A stretch of 64,000 nucleotides of DNA, from NCBI GenBank assembly GCA_905160935.1, contig CAJHZI010000559.1, positions 127,501-191,500 of the forward strand, read 5' to 3'. Of this stretch, positions 1,827 through 51,415 are shown piece by piece. The notes beneath the pieces were generated by a model. The model saw only the letters and a list, made by a program, of their open reading frames with translations, was not told the origin of the DNA and ran no database searches. Made by a program: the position numbers and the translations under genes. This stretch comes from Enchytraeus crypticus (taxonomy: Eukaryota > Annelida > Clitellata > Enchytraeida > Enchytraeidae). How positions within the stretch are numbered: the stretch's first letter is position 1; each line of letters opens with the position of its first letter.

Positions 1827-2110
1827 CCCCGTGTTGCGTCCGGGTTGTTTGAAGAATTGACCAACCGGTGACTGCACGTGTCATATAAGGCGACTAAAAC
1901 ACTAAGATCCTTAACAACGTCAGAAAGGGCATTTGGTTGGTGAACGCCTAGGCTCCAAAAATTAATACAAAAATTTAAACGAATGGAAAAGTCTCAAATA
2001 GGGATTGGCTGGTGGTGTGGTGTAGGACAGATAGGATTTGAGGCCGTCTATTCGTATCCCCCAACTCTGGTTAAACTGGGATTCAAAGGAGGATGATGAT
2101 GATGATGATG

Positions 2111-2111
<1 letters not shown>
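1827..2111 (+). mobile_element. SINE-B copy a (RTE-B-tailed short element)
   Basis: This element of about 285 bp begins CCCCGTGTTGCGTCCGGGTTG-like and ends with the RTE-B 3' terminus, including TGGTTAAACTGGGATTCAAA and a GAT repeat tail. The last 110-130 bp match the 3' ends of the RTE-B copies at about 16,080-16,197 and 26,850-26,967. It is the longest SINE-B in the window and shows the head also present at 23,044. Confidence 0.75.
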
Positions 2112-2197
<86 letters not shown>

Positions 2198-10637: not shown

Positions 10638-10832
10638 CTAACGTCAGAAAGGGCATTCGGTTGGTGAGTGCCTTGGCTCCAGGAATTGCTACAAAAATTT
10701 AATCGAATGGATAAATGAAAATAGGGGATTAACTGATGATATGATGTAGGACAGAGAGTATTTGAGACAGTCTATTCGTATCCTGACCATAGTTAAACAG
10801 GGATTCAAGGGAAGATGATGATGATGATGATG
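10638..10832 (+). mobile_element. SINE-B copy b with target-site duplication
   Basis: This 195-bp 5'-truncated SINE-B begins CTAACGTCAGAAAGGGCATT and ends with the RTE-B terminus and a GAT tail. It is flanked by a 16-bp duplication ATACAATTRGAAAGGA at 10,622-10,637 and 10,833-10,848, with one difference. The duplication proves retroposition as a unit. Confidence 0.85.
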
Positions 10833-11126
10833 ATACAATTAGAAAGGAATAGCGTGCACTTTAGGCTTTCGTAAACGTTTTAGTTTTGATATTTCCATCA
10901 GCGATTGAAAGACTAATATTAATTCTACATAACAAGGTTCAACAATTATGTATATAATTTTGTTTTTAGCAGATTTGACTGAGGTAAATAACTGAAACTT
11001 ATATGCAAAGTAATTGATGAAGTTTACTAATATAAAACCAAAGTGAACTTTTTTTGCTACAGTAGCAAACTATTGAAGTATTTTAATGATTTTAAAGTAT
11101 TAAATGAACATATACGTCTATGTAGA

Positions 11127-16197: not shown

Positions 16198-16264
16198 ATA
16201 CGTATATATTGGAAACTCACTCGACTCTCGTCGAGTTCGGACGTGTTTATAATAGCTGCGCATA

Positions 16265-17416
16265 ATGGCTGAATGTGACAATAGCAATGTTGATACGCAT
16301 GTAAATATATGTAACTCTGAAATGATAGCTTGCGAATTGCTGTGTTATTTGCAATGTAAAATGGGGAAAATGTCGAACCGCAAATTACTCAGTATTATAG
16401 GGAACTTCTATTCGGCTAATGACATTGTTGAAGCAAAAGAGAAACTTGTTGAGGCTATCGATAGACTAAGTCTAGATAAATGGCCGAGGCCATCGAAGAG
16501 AAAAGCTAGTGAAAATAAGACAAAAACGGAGCTAAATGATATCTTCAATGTCTTCAGCTATTTGGATGAAAACCTGCTCTTGGATAAAATTCCAAGATTC
16601 GTCGCAATAAGCGTGGATAAATTGCCTTCTGCGAAACTCGAGGAAGGTGATTTACGTTGCGTTTTGAACAAACTGGATTTATTAGAAAACAGAATGGATA
16701 CACTCGCTCTCTCTTCCACGAGTAAATCAGACCCGCAGTCTGAGAATTTAAGCTCCATTGTGGGTAAGTTAACAAACATTGAAGACAAAGTTTCGTTATT
16801 AACTGATGCTGGTACAACAAAATCAAATCACTCAAACCAGAAGTCAATCAATGATTCCCGTCAAATGAACATAGGAGGGGTTAATTCAGTGCGTTCATGG
16901 GCAGAAATTGTGGACTCTAATACTCCGGGTAGAGGTAGAGCATCCGTTACGAATGAGGATGAAAACGACGGATATACCCAAGTTATTCGTAGGAATAAGC
17001 AATCGTCCAATAAGAGACCTCGATCGTCACCGGGTCAGCAACAGCCATCCAAGTCTCAACCTAGGCCTCAGCCGCAGCCTAACCCTAATCCTGTCAGGAT
17101 AACTGGAACTAACACATCAACATGTGTACTGAAGGCAGCAAAGGAAGTGAAGAAAAATAAAATCTTCTATGTTAGCAATCTTTCAACAGACACCACATGT
17201 GAACAAATCCAACAGTACTTAAGTGGTTGCAAAATTAGAGTAAACAATGTGTATCAAGTTAAATGTAAGATTCCAGATTCCTTTGCATTTCGTGTAAACA
17301 TTGAAGCTGATGATGTTGACGTGTTCATGTCACAGGATATATGGGCACCTTACATAAAAATAAGAGAGTGGCTATTTAAAGAAAAATCGAATACAACTAC
17401 TTCTAACAATGAGTGA
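16265..17416 (+). CDS. LINE-C ORF1 protein (RNA-binding, 383 aa, intact)
   Basis: This open frame of 383 codons starts at the first ATG after the short leader. ORF1 proteins of LINEs package the element RNA. Visible parts are an N-terminal helical region, a probable coiled coil around residues 130-185 (LLENRMDTL, LTNIEDKVSLL), a basic and proline/glutamine-rich stretch around 235-275 (KSQPRPQPQPNPNP), and a globular C-terminal domain from about 300 (KIFYVSNLSTDTTCEQIQQY). The last looks RRM-like by pattern. No CCHC zinc knuckle is present. It is fully open while ORF2 is broken, suggesting a fairly young insertion. It overlaps ORF2 by 8 nt. Confidence 0.8.
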   Translation: MAECDNSNVDTHVNICNSEMIACELLCYLQCKMGKMSNRKLLSIIGNFYSANDIVEAKEKLVEAIDRLSLDKWPRPSKRKASENKTKTELNDIFNVFSYLDENLLLDKIPRFVAISVDKLPSAKLEEGDLRCVLNKLDLLENRMDTLALSSTSKSDPQSENLSSIVGKLTNIEDKVSLLTDAGTTKSNHSNQKSINDSRQMNIGGVNSVRSWAEIVDSNTPGRGRASVTNEDENDGYTQVIRRNKQSSNKRPRSSPGQQQPSKSQPRPQPQPNPNPVRITGTNTSTCVLKAAKEVKKNKIFYVSNLSTDTTCEQIQQYLSGCKIRVNNVYQVKCKIPDSFAFRVNIEADDVDVFMSQDIWAPYIKIREWLFKEKSNTTTSNNE

Positions 17417-20394
17417 TTTTGTCAATGAAACTTTTTTAGCGCCTGATATAGAATTACATAACGGCGGTGATATAAGTATTGTGACCTATAATATGCATGG
17501 ATACAATCAAGGAATTGTTATGCTTAAGAATTTGTGTCTCTCATATAAAATAGATATAATATTTGTACAGGAGCACTGGTTAACTAATGATCAGCTCTCT
17601 TATTTTGACTGCTTCAATAATGAGTATAATATTTATGGATCGTCTGCTATGGATGATTTGTTAGGTAAAAGTATTTTAAGAGGCAGAAGTTTTGGAGGCG
17701 TTGCTATATTTATTAAAAAATCTTTGTGTAATATGGCTTCAAATGTTAGTATTGTTACATGCAGTAAGCGATTTATTGTTATAACAATAGACAAGTTATT
17801 GCTTGTCTATGTGTATCTGCCATGTTGTAAGAATTTAGATGACCGAAGTAAATTTGAATGTACACTTCATTAAATAGAAGATGACATTGTAGGATTGAAC
17901 TATAATTATGCTATAATTGGTGGTGATTTCAATACAAATATGCTTGTGGAATCTGAAGTGTCAAACTATATAAAGAATTTATTCAACAGTGTGGGAATAG
18001 TAGTTAGCAATAACCTTATGGACTATTGCCCTATTAAATACACATTCTGTGTTGATGTAGAAAGGCATATTCTTATATTGATCATTTTCTTGTATATGAT
18101 GTAAAGCCGAATTTTATTGTGTCCCTAGAGATACTAGAACGTGTTGATAACTTTTCTGACCACATTCCGGTAATTTTAAAACTAAACAACGCAGTGTTAA
18201 AACAATGTTTTAAGAAAAATAATCAGGTGGTTAATTGTCCTGCACATTCGATGTCGGTATGTAACTTGGATTGGGGTGGCTCTAATATATCTGAGTATTA
18301 TGAACAGACGAGAATTGAGCTATATGATTTGTATAGACTGCTCAATAATGACAACCTAGATAAGTTATATGAAAATTATCCTGATTTATTTAGTCAGGAA
18401 GGTATTAATGGTATATATAATCAAATAATTTTTATTTTGAAAAATTGCTCTCTCAGAACTATTAAAAGAAAAAAGAAAAAAGATGTACGCAAATTCTGGT
18501 GGGATAAAGAGTTAAATCAAATCAAACAGGAATCTATAAAGCAATTCAAATGCTGGATCAATGCTGGTAGACCTAGCGAAGGCAGCTTATACGATAATAG
18601 AATTAAAGCACACAAAAACTATAAAAGGGCAGTAATTGCACATAAGCAAAAATACAAAAACAAAGTATCAGAAGAACTACAATCTAATTTGCTTACCTCA
18701 AGTAGTTTAAAATTTTGGAGAAGTTGGAAAGGTTATTTTCTGAAGCAAAAAACAATCAATGTAATATTGCTATTGACGGATTTAATAAAGATATTGAGAT
18801 TGCTAATGTTCTAGCCAGTAGTTTTAAAAAAGCCTGTACTCCAAACTCGATGGAAAAACACCAAACGTTTCGAGATATTTACTTTAGTAAAAAGGAAATG
18901 CCTGTAAATTCAGATAATATATGCGGCATTGAAGTAGGAATGATTGACAATGCAATTGACAGAATTAAAACAAATAAAGCCCCGGGGGCAGACGGTTTAA
19001 CAATTGAGCATATCGCTTACGCCCATCCGTCTCTAATTATAACTCTAAAAAATCTCTTTAATTTAATATTGAAACTGGGTAAGGTTCCAGATGCTTTCGG
19101 TGCTGGTGTTACTATGCCAATACCTAAATTTAAGGGTACAAAAGAAAATTATCCACGGATGATTATCGGGGTATAACTATATGCCCAATAATATCTAAAA
19201 GACTTGAGTACTGTATTATTAAGTATGTCAATTTTGAAACCTCTGCTAGGCAGTTCGGTTTTAAACAAAAAGTTGGGTGTATTAACGCTGTGCATAAACT
19301 TAGAAAAGTTATTAATTATTTCACTAAAAGGAATACCACCGTTAATATTGGAGTAATCGATCTAAGAAAAGCTTTCGATAAGTGCAGTGGATATGGGATT
19401 TTATGCATGCTACAAAATAAAGGTTTAAATAGATGTATCTTAGATGTGTTGGAAAATTGGTTTTCCAAAAACTCAACCACTGTTAAATGGGAAAACTGCA
19501 TGCTAACTGCGTACCTTTAGTATCTGGCGTCAAACAAGGAGGAGTTCTATCTCCCATATTATTTACGTTATATGTAGATAACTTGTTGAATGCGTTGGAG
19601 GAATCTAAATTAGGATGTTTTGTCAATTATAAATGTCTGAATAGCTTCATGTATGCTGACGATTTGATTCTAATCAGTATATCTGTCACTGATTTGCAGA
19701 TGATGTTTAATATATGTAATAATGTCTTTATTGATTTAGATCTGCCAATAAATACATCCAAATGCCACTGTTTAAGGATAGGTCCAAGGTGCAAATATGT
19801 GTGCTCTCCGTTAAGCATTCAAGGAGTAAATATTAATTGGGTTGATTTTATTCAATACTTAGGAGTTACTATCTGTAAAGCGAAGTATTTTAAATGCCAA
19901 TGGGATGAATCTAAAGGAAAATTCTTTAGAGCCGTTAACACAATTTTAGGAAGGTTAGGAACAAAGGCAGCTGAATATGTTATTCTTAAATTGATCAATA
20001 GTCATGCAGTGTCAGCATTGCTCTATGGCACACCTGCTGCAACCTTGCGAGAGACAGAGTTAAGGAGTTTTAGCAATGCATATGATAGTGTCTTACAAAG
20101 ATCTTTCATACAACAGACAAAGCAGTAATAATGTGGTTACAATACTATTTCGGTTTCTTGCCTCTAAATATTTTGTATGATTACAATAGATTGAATTTTT
20201 TAAATAAGCTAGTTAAAGACGGTGAATTAAATAGAGGGATTGATTTGGATCATTTAGATTACTTAGCGTTTGAGAAATTACAAAGGAAATATAATATTTT
20301 AAATGATGATTCTGTTGCTACTATAAGATTTAAACTGTGGATCTTCTTTGAAAAAATGTTAACTACGGAATCTACATCTAATTTTGATTAGTAC
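17409..20394 (+). pseudogene. LINE-C ORF2, endonuclease-reverse transcriptase (broken)
   Basis: ORF2 starts at the ATG inside ATGAGTGA, overlapping the ORF1 stop. The endonuclease region reads ISIVTYNMHGYNQGIVMLKN, then FVQEHWLTNDQL and IGGDFNTNM. The reverse transcriptase shows RQFGFKQKVG, VIDLRKAFDK (motif A), SGVKQGGVLSPILFTLYVD (motif B) and FMYADDLILI (motif C with YADD). An in-frame stop lies at about 17,871. The reading frame shifts near 18,100, 18,750, 19,180-19,290, 19,490 and 20,130, so it is not functional here. Confidence 0.85.
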
Positions 20395-23043: not shown

Positions 23044-23266
23044 TTCCCCGTGCTGTGTCCGGGTTGCTGGAAGATTAGACCAACCGTGTACTGCACGTGT
23101 TGTAAATAGTGTGAGCCCAAAGCTCCAGAAATTGCTAAAACAAATGTAAACGAATTGAATGGTATGGGCATATTGTAATTGATGTGGGAGAGAGAGGCTT
23201 GGAGAAGGTCTATTTGTACCCCGACCCTGGTTAAACTGGGATTCTGGGGAAGATGATGATGATGAG
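23044..23266 (+). mobile_element. SINE-B copy c
   Basis: The head CCCCGTGCTGTGTCCGGGTT matches copy a (1,827), and the 3' end is TGGTTAAACTGGGATTCTGG plus a GAT tail. Internally it is shortened relative to copy a. It ends about 85 bp before the EGF exon at 23,353. Confidence 0.8.
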
Positions 23267-43559: not shown

Positions 43560-44230
43560 TAACGATGCTTATTTGTTCTATGGTTTCAGTGGGTTATCTA
43601 TCCCGAATTTCCCTCACGATGTAAGAAGTAGCATCGTCAATGTCCAAAGCTTTCAATCCGTGTAAAGGATAAATCTAGTATGCACCTACACCCTCTACTT
43701 AAATTACTGTACAAGGCTCCATATCCTTGTCATTTTGCAGAAAATATAGTTTTTAATATAGGTCAATGCTATACTGAATTTTTGAGTGAATGAAGGCAAA
43801 ATAGAGATCTCTACGACAGTTCATCCCTGGGGATATTATCTCTTCGTCCATATAGCATACTATCTAAACTATTTTTTCTATGAGACTAATATTGGATGTG
43901 TTCTTTAAATGAAAAACCATCATCAAGTGGAATACTAATAAATTTCATATCGTAAACTATATTAGCCTAGGCTCCAGAATTTGTTACAAAAATTTAAGCA
44001 AATGGAAAAGTCTCAAATAGGGGATTGACTGATGATATGATGTAGGACAGAGAGAATTTTGAGACAGTCTATTCGTATCCCTATCATAACTGAGATCCAA
44101 GGGAAGATGATGATGATCACTTTAGGGATATCAAAAGCTAAATTCTTGCCGATGTTAACAGGGTAATTTATTAATTCATTAACGAAATATTGGATGTTTG
44201 TAATTTTTCTTTCTTTATGCCTAGACGCTT
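43560..44230 (-). mobile_element. LINE-H, degraded CR1-like LINE, interrupted by SINE-B
   Basis: The minus strand gives FISIPLDDGFSFKEHI near 43,930 and YFAFIHSKIQYSIDLY-like pieces near 43,800, typical of CR1/Jockey ends. A SINE-B copy sits at 43,964-44,117. The sequence is highly broken. Confidence 0.5.
43964..44117 (+). mobile_element. SINE-B copy d (5'-truncated)
   Basis: It starts AGCCTAGGCTCCAGAATTTG, contains GGGGATTGACTGATGATATG and ends in GGGAAGATGATGATGAT, matching copies a and b. Confidence 0.8.
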
Positions 44231-47208: not shown

Positions 47209-47294
47209 ATTTACGAATTTTAGGTTTATATTGAAAACATCTTTTTCAAATATTTAAATTTTTTATTCAGATATTAATTTATTGAGAGTCATAT

Positions 47295-47400
47295 GCTCCA
47301 TTAGTCGATCGTCGCCTTAGGATTGAGAGTTTTAGATTTGAAATCTCAGGTTCAGTTAAAATAGACCATTTTTCTAGTTGTTTGCAATTTTGTGCACGGG
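47295..47400 (+). mobile_element. tRNA-headed SINE family, copy b
   Basis: ATCGTCGCCTTAGGATTGAG, then TAGATTTGAAATC and AGGTTCAGTTAAAAT match the order in the copy at 48,062. Confidence 0.5.
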
Positions 47401-47411
47401 TTACATTCTAG

Positions 47412-47549
47412 TTCATAAATATTAACGCTAATTACAGCTCTGTCACTTGTCCACTATAAATTTTGATGAGTGTAAGTTATATTAGTCACTATAAGTATAT
47501 TGCGAGTATTTATTTAATTTTATCACAGCGTCATATTTAGAATTCTAAA

Positions 47550-48030: not shown

Positions 48031-48061
48031 GTGTATATTATATTGATTTCTTGAGAATTGT

Positions 48062-48180
48062 TTGGTAAATTTCTAGAGCGTCCGCCTTAGGATTTGAAGT
48101 TCGGATTCAAATCCAGGTTCAGTTAAAAGTGCCTCTTTATCCTACATGTGTGCATTTTTCTCACGGATACATCTAGTATA
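48062..48180 (+). mobile_element. tRNA-headed SINE family, copy c
   Basis: TCTAGAGCGTCCGCCTTAGG, then GTTCGGATTCAAATCC (a good B box) and AGGTTCAGTTAAAAGTGCC are the clearest copy of this family. The anticodon-loop region would be GCCTTAG. Confidence 0.65.
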
Positions 48181-48465: not shown

Positions 48466-48770
48466 GTCTGTCCCTTTACGCTTTCACTTAGTTTCATTTC
48501 TCTTTTCTCTCATCTGTAATTAATATTAGTGCAGACGAATTAGCCAATCTTGGTTTAAGTGTAAATTGTAGACGTGACACATGAAATTTAGCCAATTAAT
48601 AGGTCTATGCCTATTGGTATCAGGACACTAGATTAGGTTAATAAGCTACGTTATTTATTATAATCTCCGGTATCCTCAAAAGGCTTCAAAATTAGGTCTA
48701 ATATTCAAAATCGGAACCTTTGTTTTAAAGCGAAATGTTTTAAAGTTTTTAACGCAATCTTCAGCTAAAG
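48466..48770. other. Intron, nothing recognised
   Basis: This is AT-rich intron between the last visible exon and the fold-back element. Confidence 0.55.
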
Positions 48771-48773
48771 TAG

Positions 48774-50997
48774 ATATGAATAGCGGCTTCTGGAACAGCC
48801 CAGCTACGGTTTAGCCTATTAGCCTATAGGCTAGCAGCTGCTAGGCTGTAGCCTAGCAGCTGCCTATAGCCTAGCAGCTGCTAGCAGCAGCGGGCGGCGG
48901 CAGCAGGCGGCGGCGGGCGGCTCTCGGGGCGGCGCTGCTGCAGGGGGTATGACGCGCAGACGGGACGGCTCTGCTGCGGCCTGTCTAGACAAGTCCGACA
49001 AAAACCAGATGCGCGGTGCCTTGACGCGGAGAATGTCCTTGAATTTCAAAACAAACTTATTACGTAGTCGCACACATATAGACAAGTCTACAATTACACA
49101 ATTGTGGTGAAACCGTTGATTCTTAATTAGCTGTCCTACTTATTGTGCAGCGTTTCGAAATATGCAATAGATACGTACTCTGTCTGTATGCACGGCAACT
49201 GTTGTTATGATGTATGCAAATTGTAAACACTTTTTCAGTTAGATGTCTCTAAGTGTTAACATTAAGTGTTTGTAAACAGTAACCACTATTCCGACAAGGC
49301 ATCTTTATCCACTTTAAATTTACCAAGACGTGTTTCTATCAACATTAACTTTACCAAGTCATGCTTTTATTAACTTTAACATTAACAAGTTATGTTTTTA
49401 TGAAATTTATTATCGTGAAGACATGCTTTTATCAATTGTAAATTTACCAAGGCATCTTTTTTACCAACTTTAACTTTAACAAGTTAAGTTTTTATCAATT
49501 TTAAATTTATCAAATCTTATTTTTATCAATTTTAAATTTAGCAAGTTAATTTGTTATCAAATTTAAATTTATCATGTCATCTTTTTATTAATTTTAACTA
49601 TAACAAGTTAAGTTTTTATCAATTTTAAATTTATCAGATGACCTGCGCAATAACAGCTGCGGTGTGCAGCCTAAAAGCTAGTGATGACGCATTATCAGAT
49701 GACCCAAGCTACCTAAGGAGGTACACACTGACCTATACTGCGCAATAATAGATGCTGCATGCAGCTGCAGGCAGTGGCGGACTAACAGCTTCTGTGGCCT
49801 AAACCTAGGTTGGATAGCCTAAGGCGCAGAACCTATACTGCGCAATAACAGCTGCTGCGTGCAGGCGGCGCGCTGCTGCGCTCAGCCTACAATGATGACT
49901 CATTCTCACGCGCACAATTGTTATTTTGGCCTACTAAGCTCAACGTAAACATGATGACTCATTCTCACGCGCGCAATTGTTACTTTGACCTACTAAACTC
50001 AACGTAAACACGATGACTCATTCTCACGCGCGCAATTGTTACTTTGACTTACTAAGCACGACGTAAACATGATGACTCATTCTCACATGCACAATTGTTA
50101 TATTGATCTACTAAATTCAATGCATCTTTTTTACTAACATTAACTGTATCAAGGTGTTTTACATCAACATTAACTTTATCAAAGCTTATTTGTATCAACT
50201 TTACATTTATCAAGTTAAGTTTTATCAATTTTAAAATTGATAAAAATAAGATTTGACAAATTTAAATTTGATAAAAACTTAACTTGTTAAAGTTAAAGTT
50301 GGTAAAAAAGATGCCTTGGTAAATTTACAATTGATAAAAGCATGTCTTCACGATAATAAATTTTATAAAAACATAACTTGTTAATGTTAAAGTTGATAAA
50401 AACTTGACTTGGTAAAGTTAATGTTGATAGAAACACGTCTTGGTAAATTTAAAGTTGATAAAGATGCCTTGTCGGAAAAGTGGTTACTGTTTATAAACAC
50501 TTAATGTTAACACTTAGAGACATCTAACTGAAAAAGTGTTTACAATTTGCATACATCATAACAACAGTTGCCGTGCATACAGACAGAGTACGTATCTATT
50601 GCATATTTCGAAACGCTGCGCAATAAGTAGGACAGCTAATTAAGAATCAACGGTTTCACCACAATGTGTAATTGTAGACTTGTCCATATGTGTGCGACTA
50701 CGTAATAAGTTTGTTTTGAAATTCTAGGACATTCTCCGCGTCAAGGCACCGCGCATCTGGTTTTTGTCGGACTTGTCTAGACAGGCCGCAGCAGAGCCGT
50801 CCCGTCTGCGCGTCATACCCCCTGCAGCAGCGCCGCCCCGAGAGCCGCTCGCCGCCGCCTGCTGCCGCCGCCTGCAGCAGCTGCTGCTAGCAGCTGCTAG
50901 GCTATAGGCAGCTGCTAGGCTACAGCCTAGCAGCTGCTAGCCTATAGGCTAATAGGGTAAACCGTTGCTGGGCTGTTCCAGAAGCCGCTATTCATAT
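48774..50997. mobile_element. Fold-back element with inverted arms of about 760 bp
   Basis: The outer ends are TGAATAGCGGCTTCTGGAAC and its complement, flanked by TA on both sides. The left arm (to about 49,530) and right arm (from about 50,236) are nearly identical over their outer 300 bp. In order inward, each arm has a GC-rich tip with CTAGCAGCTGCTAG repeats and GGCGGC runs, a unique block (CAGACGGGACGGCTCTGCTG) and a run of TTTATCAATTTTAAATTTA-type units. The middle has four 59-bp repeats. No open frame for a transposase is present, so it depends on another element. Confidence 0.9.
49893..50110. repeat. Four 59-bp tandem repeats inside the fold-back element
   Basis: Each unit contains GATGACTCATTCTCACGCGC, AATTGTTA and CTCAACGTAAACA. 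The last unit is the most diverged. Confidence 0.9.
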
Positions 50998-51009
50998 GCT
51001 AGCGAGATA

Positions 51010-51415
51010 AGAGCAGTACAGCAATCTGCAGCTTCTGTTATGATTCAGCTTGTGGAATCGTATTGTGTGCCTTCTCTATGTGACAACAATGTTACTATCA
51101 ATTACATAGACTCTGAACAAGATCCAGTTTAGAACACAATTGAAATTGATACTCAGTTCAATAATTACTTCTCTGCAATAGGTAACACCCTTGCTTCTAA
51201 GATTATCTCACCTGTTAATGGATATAAATCATTCCTTTCTCCTTCTATAACAAAATCTATTTTTTAAATCCTGCAACTGAAGATGAAGTATTAAATATTA
51301 TTTTGTCTCTGAAATCTACTAATTCTACTGGTAGTGATGGCGTAATTTAAAAATTTCAACTTTCTATTAATTTTATCATTAATCCTTTAACTCACTCACT
51401 TAAATCAGGCTGGTC
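51010..51415 (+). mobile_element. CR1/L2-like LINE fragment (start of reverse transcriptase)
   Basis: The plus strand gives FNNYFSAIGNTLASKIISPV, then EDEVLNIILSLKSTNSTGSD, the usual sequence before the reverse-transcriptase fingers. It is broken by frame changes and stops after about 400 bp. Confidence 0.65.

What the first reader, a model, noticed from the sequence alone, without database searches (positions are those of the whole stretch)
48774..50997. Large fold-back element with near-identical arms of about 760 bp and no coding capacity
The sequence shows two inverted arms (48,774-about 49,530 and about 50,236-50,997) whose outer 300 bp differ at only a few positions. They end in TGAATAGCGGCTTCTGGAAC and are flanked by TA. 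Each arm has a GC-rich tip of CTAGCAGCTGCTAG repeats, a unique block and a run of TTTATCAATTTTAAATTTA-like units. This layered build recalls Foldback-type elements, but I recognise no named family. High arm identity points to recent mobility or arm-to-arm conversion. Transcribed within an intron, it would form very long double-stranded RNA.
Basis: partly seen in the sequence, partly recalled or inferred. Interest (0 to 1): 0.75.

Follow-up and report, generated by a model that had tools for sequence, protein, structure and literature searches.

The report
Fold-back offshoot of a Polinton
This 2.2-kb hairpin-shaped stretch of DNA is a gene-less offshoot of Polintons, the large virus-like mobile elements found in the same genome, and it probably moves by borrowing their enzymes.

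Summary
The fold-back is real: arms 48,769-49,539 and 50,227-51,000 are about 97% identical and enclose no gene. Joining its flanks gives a stretch colinear with a LINE copy elsewhere in the window, so it is a discrete insertion.

In most genome copies the element starts AGTAGRTAT, so the "flanking TA" is internal. Of 14 two-ended relatives, 11 have an exact 6-bp target duplication and 3 match 5/6; none has an exact 5- or 7-bp one. The window copy has only 4/6.

AGT...ACT ends plus 6-bp duplications are Polinton/Maverick hallmarks (PMC8097293, passages). The genome is rich in Polintons ending AGTAGATAT. Two relatives with the fold-back's own tip, 15.5 and 13.5 kb, share a polymerase-like gene (weakly identified); the first also has an integrase, the second the window element's inner repeats.

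Best reading: a non-autonomous, TIR-only Polinton derivative, mobilised in trans (inferred). Relatives reach 10.6 kb through kilobase arrays of the 31-bp repeat.

The parts
48763..48768 (.). left copy of the proposed 6-bp target duplication, AGCTAA (the LINE relative reads AGCAAA here)
   Evidence: 4 of 6 match the right copy
48769..48777 (+). left terminus AGTAGATAT, shared with resident Polintons (AGTAGATATATGGTACC)
48769..49539 (+). left inverted arm
48778..48980 (+). GC-rich tip (66.5% GC) with CTAGCAGCTGCTAG palindromes; the outer 120 bp of the arm match one end of the 15.5-kb element on C293 in 110 of 123 alignment columns
48981..49294 (+). unique block of the arm
49295..49636 (+). 31-bp AT-rich tandem array, + orientation
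49637..49891 (+). GC-rich middle block; relatives lie about 0.95 kb inside both ends of the 13.5-kb element on C419 (the right one partial)
49892..50114 (+). 59-bp tandem array, 3.8 copies
50118..50232 (+). second piece of 31-bp array, still + orientation
50220..50245 (.). perfect 26-bp palindrome where + oriented 31-bp units meet the inverted arm (proposed snap-back junction)
50227..51000 (-). right inverted arm; its last bases (ATATGCT) read as an eroded form of ATATCTACT
51001..51006 (.). right copy of the proposed target duplication, AGCGAG
48517..48769 (-). left flank: decayed LINE reverse-transcriptase remnant, matching the LINE copy at 33833-33582
51026..51072 (-). right flank: continuation of the same LINE remnant (33569-33523)

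Best explanation
The element is a non-autonomous, TIR-only derivative of a Polinton (Maverick) lineage living in the same genome. Shown: it is one discrete insertion into a LINE; it belongs to a multi-copy family whose two-ended members make 6-bp target duplications and mostly begin AGTAGRTAT; resident Polintons begin AGTAGATAT and make 6-bp duplications; a 15.5-kb element with the fold-back's own tip carries a retroviral-type integrase; a 13.5-kb element with that tip carries the same polymerase-like gene as the first, plus the window element's GC block, 59-bp array and 31-bp array in the same order and orientation. Inferred: the fold-back has lost all genes, its ends are recognised in trans by Polinton integrase, and it is copied by the Polinton protein-primed polymerase. 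Inferred: the second arm arose, or was renewed, when copying snapped back within the 31-bp array (26-bp palindrome at 50,220-50,245). The arms would stay alike because the displaced single strand can pair end to end as a panhandle, as in adenovirus replication (recalled analogy).
For: Flanks joined without the element are colinear with a LINE paralogue (tblastn E 1e-16 for the LINE protein against the joined flanks). Exact 6-bp duplications in 11 of 14 two-ended relatives and 5/6 in the other 3; exact 5-bp 0 of 14, 7-bp 0 of 14. Seven of the 14 had their ends fixed in advance by the terminal pattern: 5 exact (one in a TA run), 2 at 5/6. Terminal pattern: 43 places in the genome at up to 2 mismatches, reversed-pattern control 0. 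Resident Polinton 17-mer AGTAGATATATGGTACC: 193 exact places, control 0; it occurs in 18 of the 20 stretches that I fetched upstream of PolB genes, and in 15 of these 18 the main alignments between copies begin at or near it. 9 of 10 element pairs with this end have exact 6-bp duplications, 3 of the 9 being TATATA. The C293 element (15.5 kb) matches the window tip in 110 of 123 columns at one end, carries rve PF00665 at E 9.1e-12 (retroviral integrases in the PDB), and has long TIRs (76% over 1137 columns) that match the arms of fold-backs L015 and L032 at 77% and 82% over 858 and 936 columns. The C419 element (13.5 kb) shares protein pieces with C293 at 80-90% identity, and holds a 31-bp array and the GC-block/59-bp modules.
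Against: The window copy's own duplication is only 4 of 6, and its right terminus is eroded. The polymerase of the C293/C419 lineage is only weakly identified: PF03175 E 0.0013 in one of six pieces, below the curated cut-off, Endonuclease_7 E 3.8e-4, also below cut-off, and no significant match to the common Polinton polymerase of this genome. I looked for an integrase in C293 only, not in C419. The open frames of C293 are broken, so that copy is unlikely to be the present helper. Against the common Polintons only the outermost 9-10 bp are shared. Movement in trans was not observed. The 31-bp unit was not found as an array in the C293 ends, only in C419. 12 of the 19 fetched loci gave no second end, so the 14 are those that could be resolved.
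Confidence: 0.86

Rival explanations
1. An independent fold-back transposon that has converged on, or captured, Polinton ends and only hijacks the integrase (a parasite, not a descendant).
For: Against the common Polinton lineage only the outermost 9-10 bp are shared, and the 10-mers behind the terminus differ between copies.
Against: The second Polinton lineage shares hundreds of bases of arm with the family and the inner modules.
Confidence: 0.09
2. A Tc1/mariner-type (TA) or Sola2-type (4-bp AWWT) fold-back, as the ATAT at both ends would suggest.
For: ATAT at both ends of the palindrome; Tc4, a TcMar element first described as an element with a fold-back structure, exists (PMC11071193, passages); Sola2 elements with AWWT duplications exist (PMC3627910, passages).
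Against: In other copies ATAT/GTAT lies inside the conserved terminus, and target duplications are 6 bp in 11 of 14.
Confidence: 0.02
3. An assembly artefact or chance inverted duplication of local DNA.
For: Inverted artefacts may occur in this assembly: contig C626:2700-9900 is a 7.2-kb palindrome of 99.9% identity.
Against: Arms differ at 16 positions plus indels; the flanks rejoin a LINE; many copies exist elsewhere.
Confidence: 0.01

Closest known systems
Polinton / Maverick
   Same: AGT...ACT ends, 6-bp target duplication, long TIRs (intact vertebrate Mavericks: (AGT)2//(ACT)2 or (AG)3//(CT)3 ends, 6-bp duplications, TIRs 46-1447 bp; PMC8097293, passages); tip and arm sequence shared with 13-15-kb gene-bearing elements here
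   Different: 2.2 kb instead of about 13-25 kb, no genes, arms make up about 70% of the element
MITEs filed as Maverick in Helicoverpa (PMC9033116, passages only)
   Same: non-autonomous, 6-bp duplication in the table row
   Different: as I read the table row, 306-654 bp with TIRs of 18-42 bp and 5 sequences in H. zea; no fold-back build or helper in the passages I saw
Drosophila foldback elements (FB, Tetris, Galileo)
   Same: long, internally repetitive TIRs; Tetris copies lack conserved ORFs and its TIR repeats feed a satellite (PMC4079207, one section and passages); Galileo TIRs 0.3-1.2 kb (PMC3573991, passages; PMC3688188, abstract)
   Different: Tetris has 8-10 bp duplications, Galileo a P-type transposase; a 31-bp repeat in FB is recalled, and I compared no FB sequence
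Tc4 of C. elegans; Mcmar of Meloidogyne
   Same: fold-back or long-TIR elements (PMC11071193 and PMC3169594, passages)
   Different: Tc4 duplicates TNA at CTNAG; Mcmar is Tc1/mariner-like
Defective adenovirus genomes with inverted terminal duplications (recalled, no call)
   Same: symmetric short genomes kept by protein-primed replication and panhandle repair
   Different: viral particles, not chromosomal insertions

Membership tests
Polinton / Maverick | 6-bp target site duplication | tested here: met
   family: 11 of 14 exact, 3 at 5/6; window copy 4/6 only
Polinton / Maverick | ends 5'-AGT...ACT-3' | tested here: met
   AGTAGATAT at the left end; right end eroded; same start as resident Polintons
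Polinton / Maverick | long terminal inverted repeats | tested here: met
   about 770 bp
Polinton / Maverick | integrase and protein-primed polymerase genes in the element | tested here: not met
   no stop-free frame above 91 aa; hence at most a non-autonomous derivative
Polinton / Maverick | gene-bearing relative with the same tips | tested here: met
   C293 element: tip 110/123, rve E 9.1e-12; its polymerase only weakly identified
Tc1/mariner | TA target duplication | tested here: not met
   TA lies inside the terminus; exact 2-bp repeats outside it in 3 of 14, each inside an exact 6-bp one
Mutator/FB-type foldback | 8-10 bp target duplication | tested here: not met
   exact 8-bp 1 of 14, 9-bp 0 of 14, 10-bp 1 of 14; the 8- and 10-bp case is one (TA)n site
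Sola2 | 4-bp AWWT duplication | tested here: not met
   exact 4-bp in 2 of 14, at the TATATA and TGTGTG sites
Foldback architecture (descriptive class) | long TIRs built partly of tandem repeats around a middle domain | tested here: met

The most novel reading that the evidence does not exclude
The family consists of chromosomally integrated defective genomes of a virus-like Polinton: symmetric, gene-less molecules made by snap-back copying of one end during protein-primed replication, kept alike by panhandle repair, and living on helper Polintons. They carry a 31-bp repeat that in one relative has grown into arrays of about 4 kb per arm, so Polinton replication would be a source of satellite DNA.
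Probability: 0.3. Interest if true: 0.82.

Novelty: new variant of a known kind. Interest (0 to 1): 0.64.

Why it matters
Fold-back elements have been traced to Mutator-, P- and Tc1/mariner-type transposons; here is a fold-back family tied to Polintons, the virus-like giants. It offers a non-coding reporter of Polinton activity (6-bp duplications, shared tips), a possible case of defective-genome biology inside a chromosome, and a route by which Polinton ends could seed long satellite arrays. It also shows how such ends can be misread: a TA that seemed to be the target site is internal.

Tried and rejected
TA, AT or ATAT as target duplication: the natural reading of the window alone, dropped when most other copies showed AGTAGR outside ATAT/GTAT and 6-bp duplications. 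Searches that led nowhere: the TIR 19-mer in viral contigs, 0, and in prokaryote genome contigs, 6 stretches with one match each (about 2 expected in 257 Gb of uniform random sequence; none with a second copy in the stretch); phages, no match; Rfam at gathering scores, 0; tRNA, 0. Origin of the arms from the common Polinton lineage: dropped, only 9-10 bp shared. Proving the polymerase of the C293/C419 lineage by comparison with the common Polinton polymerase gave nothing significant, and NCBIfam nothing. Capsid- and protease-like looks of some C293 frames are recalled resemblance only; Pfam gave no hit for those pieces. Partner shuffling gave a mean of 0.82 exact 6-bp matches per 14, but its shuffles include true pairings, so I rely on the 5- and 7-bp controls instead. 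Three fold-back relatives (L016, L017, L032) have stop-free frames of 101-152 aa that I did not scan. Papers: ten searches, each showing a capped list (20 of 62); no listed title or abstract start describes fold-back or TIR-only Polintons, but most subscription papers are not held. The original Tc4 paper and a paper on Sola and related superfamilies are not held.

Full report
What was claimed and what is there. The window holds two inverted arms, 48774-49539 and 50227-50997, 96.9% identical over 772 columns. Aligned between 48778-49535 and 50236-50993 they show 16 substitutions and 12 gap columns, K2P 0.022. In 100 shuffles the best inverted match reached 41.9 bits, against 1282. Layers: GC-rich tip with 14-bp palindromes such as CTAGCAGCTGCTAG, a unique block, a 31-bp AT-rich array; then a middle with a GC-rich block, 3.8 copies of a 59-bp unit and a further piece of 31-bp array in the same orientation, which meets the right arm at a perfect 26-bp palindrome. 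There is no coding capacity. As single-stranded RNA, 751 of 762 left-arm bases pair with the other arm. That is a property of the sequence, not evidence of transcription.

It is a discrete insertion. The left flank up to 48769 and the right flank from 51026 match neighbouring parts of one LINE copy, 33833-33582 and 33569-33523. With the element left out, the joined flanks align across the junction to the LINE, as DNA and as protein (E 1e-16). The joined flanks had about 24 bases more than the LINE at the junction; 18 of them are accounted for by the corrected ends (9 bp left terminus, 3 bp right, 6 bp duplicated target).

The genome corrects the ends. The window is G000:C466:127501-191500 of a 524-Mb genome in 802 contigs. 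The outer 307 bp of the arm gives 82 matches; only 40 of 155 first-look candidates were scored, so counts are lower bounds. In the window it starts at 48769. The ATAT that looked like a target site is therefore internal.

Target duplication. With these ends, 11 of 14 two-ended elements have exact 6-bp duplications and 3 have 5 of 6; exact 5-bp and 7-bp: 0 of 14 each. I left out of that count the window copy (AGCTAA/AGCGAG, 4 of 6) and C708, which repeats the insertion seen in L023. The first seven came from 19 loci, of which 12 gave no second end in the stretch fetched; there the boundary was chosen among a few candidate AGT/ACT positions, which favours a match. For the other seven it was fixed beforehand by the pattern, with 5 exact and 2 at 5/6. 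One exact case (C293, TATATA) lies in a TA run and says little. The C600 pair (L020) could not be resolved to two ends.

Polintons in the same genome. PF03175 (DNA_pol_B_2) gives 206 matches, many in open frames of about 1350-1420 aa. Upstream of 20 such genes I fetched 6 kb each (one shorter); 18 of 20 contain AGTAGATATATGGTACC. In 15 of the 18 the main alignments between copies begin at or near it; in three (L045, L062, L064) they begin further in. The 17-mer occurs 193 times in the genome, reversed control 0. For 10 element pairs with this end, 9 have exact 6-bp duplications, three of them TATATA; the tenth (C108, 3 of 6; ends alike at only 51 of 110 positions) seems to pair ends of different elements. 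In vertebrates intact Mavericks end (AGT)2//(ACT)2 or (AG)3//(CT)3, among others, with 6-bp duplications (PMC8097293, passages).

A second Polinton lineage carries the fold-back's own tip. The terminal pattern AGTAGRTAT-N10-TTCTGGRACWGYCC (up to 2 mismatches) has 43 places, control 0. Two inverted pairs are of Polinton size. C293:2426009-2441469 (15.5 kb) aligns to the window tip at 110 of 123 columns at one end and 100 of 136 at the other; a common Polinton gives 74 of 144. Separate stretches of it carry an integrase core (PF00665 E 9.1e-12; PDB retroviral integrases), PC4 domains and a polymerase-like gene (PF03175 E 0.0013, below cut-off; no significant match to the common Polinton polymerase). 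Its frames are broken. Its TIRs are long (76% over 1137 columns) and match the arms of fold-backs L015 and L032. C419:701964-715467 (13.5 kb) shares the polymerase-like pieces at 80-90%, has a weak Endonuclease_7 hit, a 31-bp array in + orientation at 704800-706000, and the GC-block/59-bp modules from 702915 to 704012 on the + strand, with a partial copy on the - strand near its right end. The window element has GC block, 59-bp array and 31-bp array in that order and orientation from its left end; the parts of C419 between were not read.

How it probably works. The shown part is ends, duplications, shared tips, shared inner modules and lack of genes. Inferred: integration by Polinton integrase in trans; replication by the protein-primed polymerase; origin of the symmetric form by snap-back in the 31-bp array; arms homogenised by end-to-end pairing of a displaced strand. 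The last step rests on a recalled analogy with adenovirus. The 31-bp array varies from none detected (for example L017, L022, L032) to about 4.2 kb per arm: L018/L019, a 10,626-bp element with duplication GACGAT, has arrays of about 4.15 and 4.2 kb in opposite orientation. That resembles Tetris, whose TIR repeats feed a satellite (PMC4079207, one section and passages).

Novelty. Fold-back elements are known with Mutator- and P-type transposases (PMC4079207, PMC3169594, PMC3573991: passages) and in the Tc1/mariner group (PMC11071193, passages). Short MITEs have been filed as Maverick with a 6-bp duplication (PMC9033116, passages). I saw no description of fold-back or TIR-only Polintons in the capped listings of ten searches (last), in a library that lacks most subscription papers. 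I therefore call it a new variant of a known kind.

Noticed in passing
G000 (own genome): Polinton-rich genome: 206 PF03175 matches, many in open frames of 1350-1420 aa, and 193 exact copies of the Polinton terminal 17-mer.
   Followed up: partly
one search places (listed part): At the common Polinton ends listed, the 17-mer usually recurs in inverted orientation about 115-195 bp away, so the TIR itself seems bounded by inverted repeats.
   Followed up: no
L023 (C626:2700-9900): Near-perfect 7.2-kb palindrome (99.9%) near a contig end; C708 holds a like copy of the small fold-back inside it. Possibly an assembly artefact.
   Followed up: partly
L057 and L058 (C234, C108): Beyond a common Polinton end lie frames 42-86% identical to separate pieces of the C293 element, its integrase piece included: a common Polinton seems to sit in or beside one of the second lineage; the two loci are 99.9% alike.
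   Followed up: no
L101 1660-2165: PC4 (transcriptional coactivator p15) domain hits in two overlapping frames near one end of the C293 element.
   Followed up: partly
L020 and L029 termini: Some copies carry AACCCCAATAC-like sequence in place of the usual tip 10-mer; tip 10-mers differ widely between copies.
   Followed up: no
window 16256-20391: Long non-LTR retrotransposon: several large frames in a row, one with RVT_1; the window holds many LINE fragments.
   Followed up: no
window 47271-47412 and 48040-48177: Repeated stretches (73%) with a tRNA-like B-box look (recalled motif), perhaps SINEs.
   Followed up: no
window 1916-2113, 10640-10835, 23122-23265, 43965-44117: Short dispersed repeat of about 150-200 bp, four copies.
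   Followed up: no
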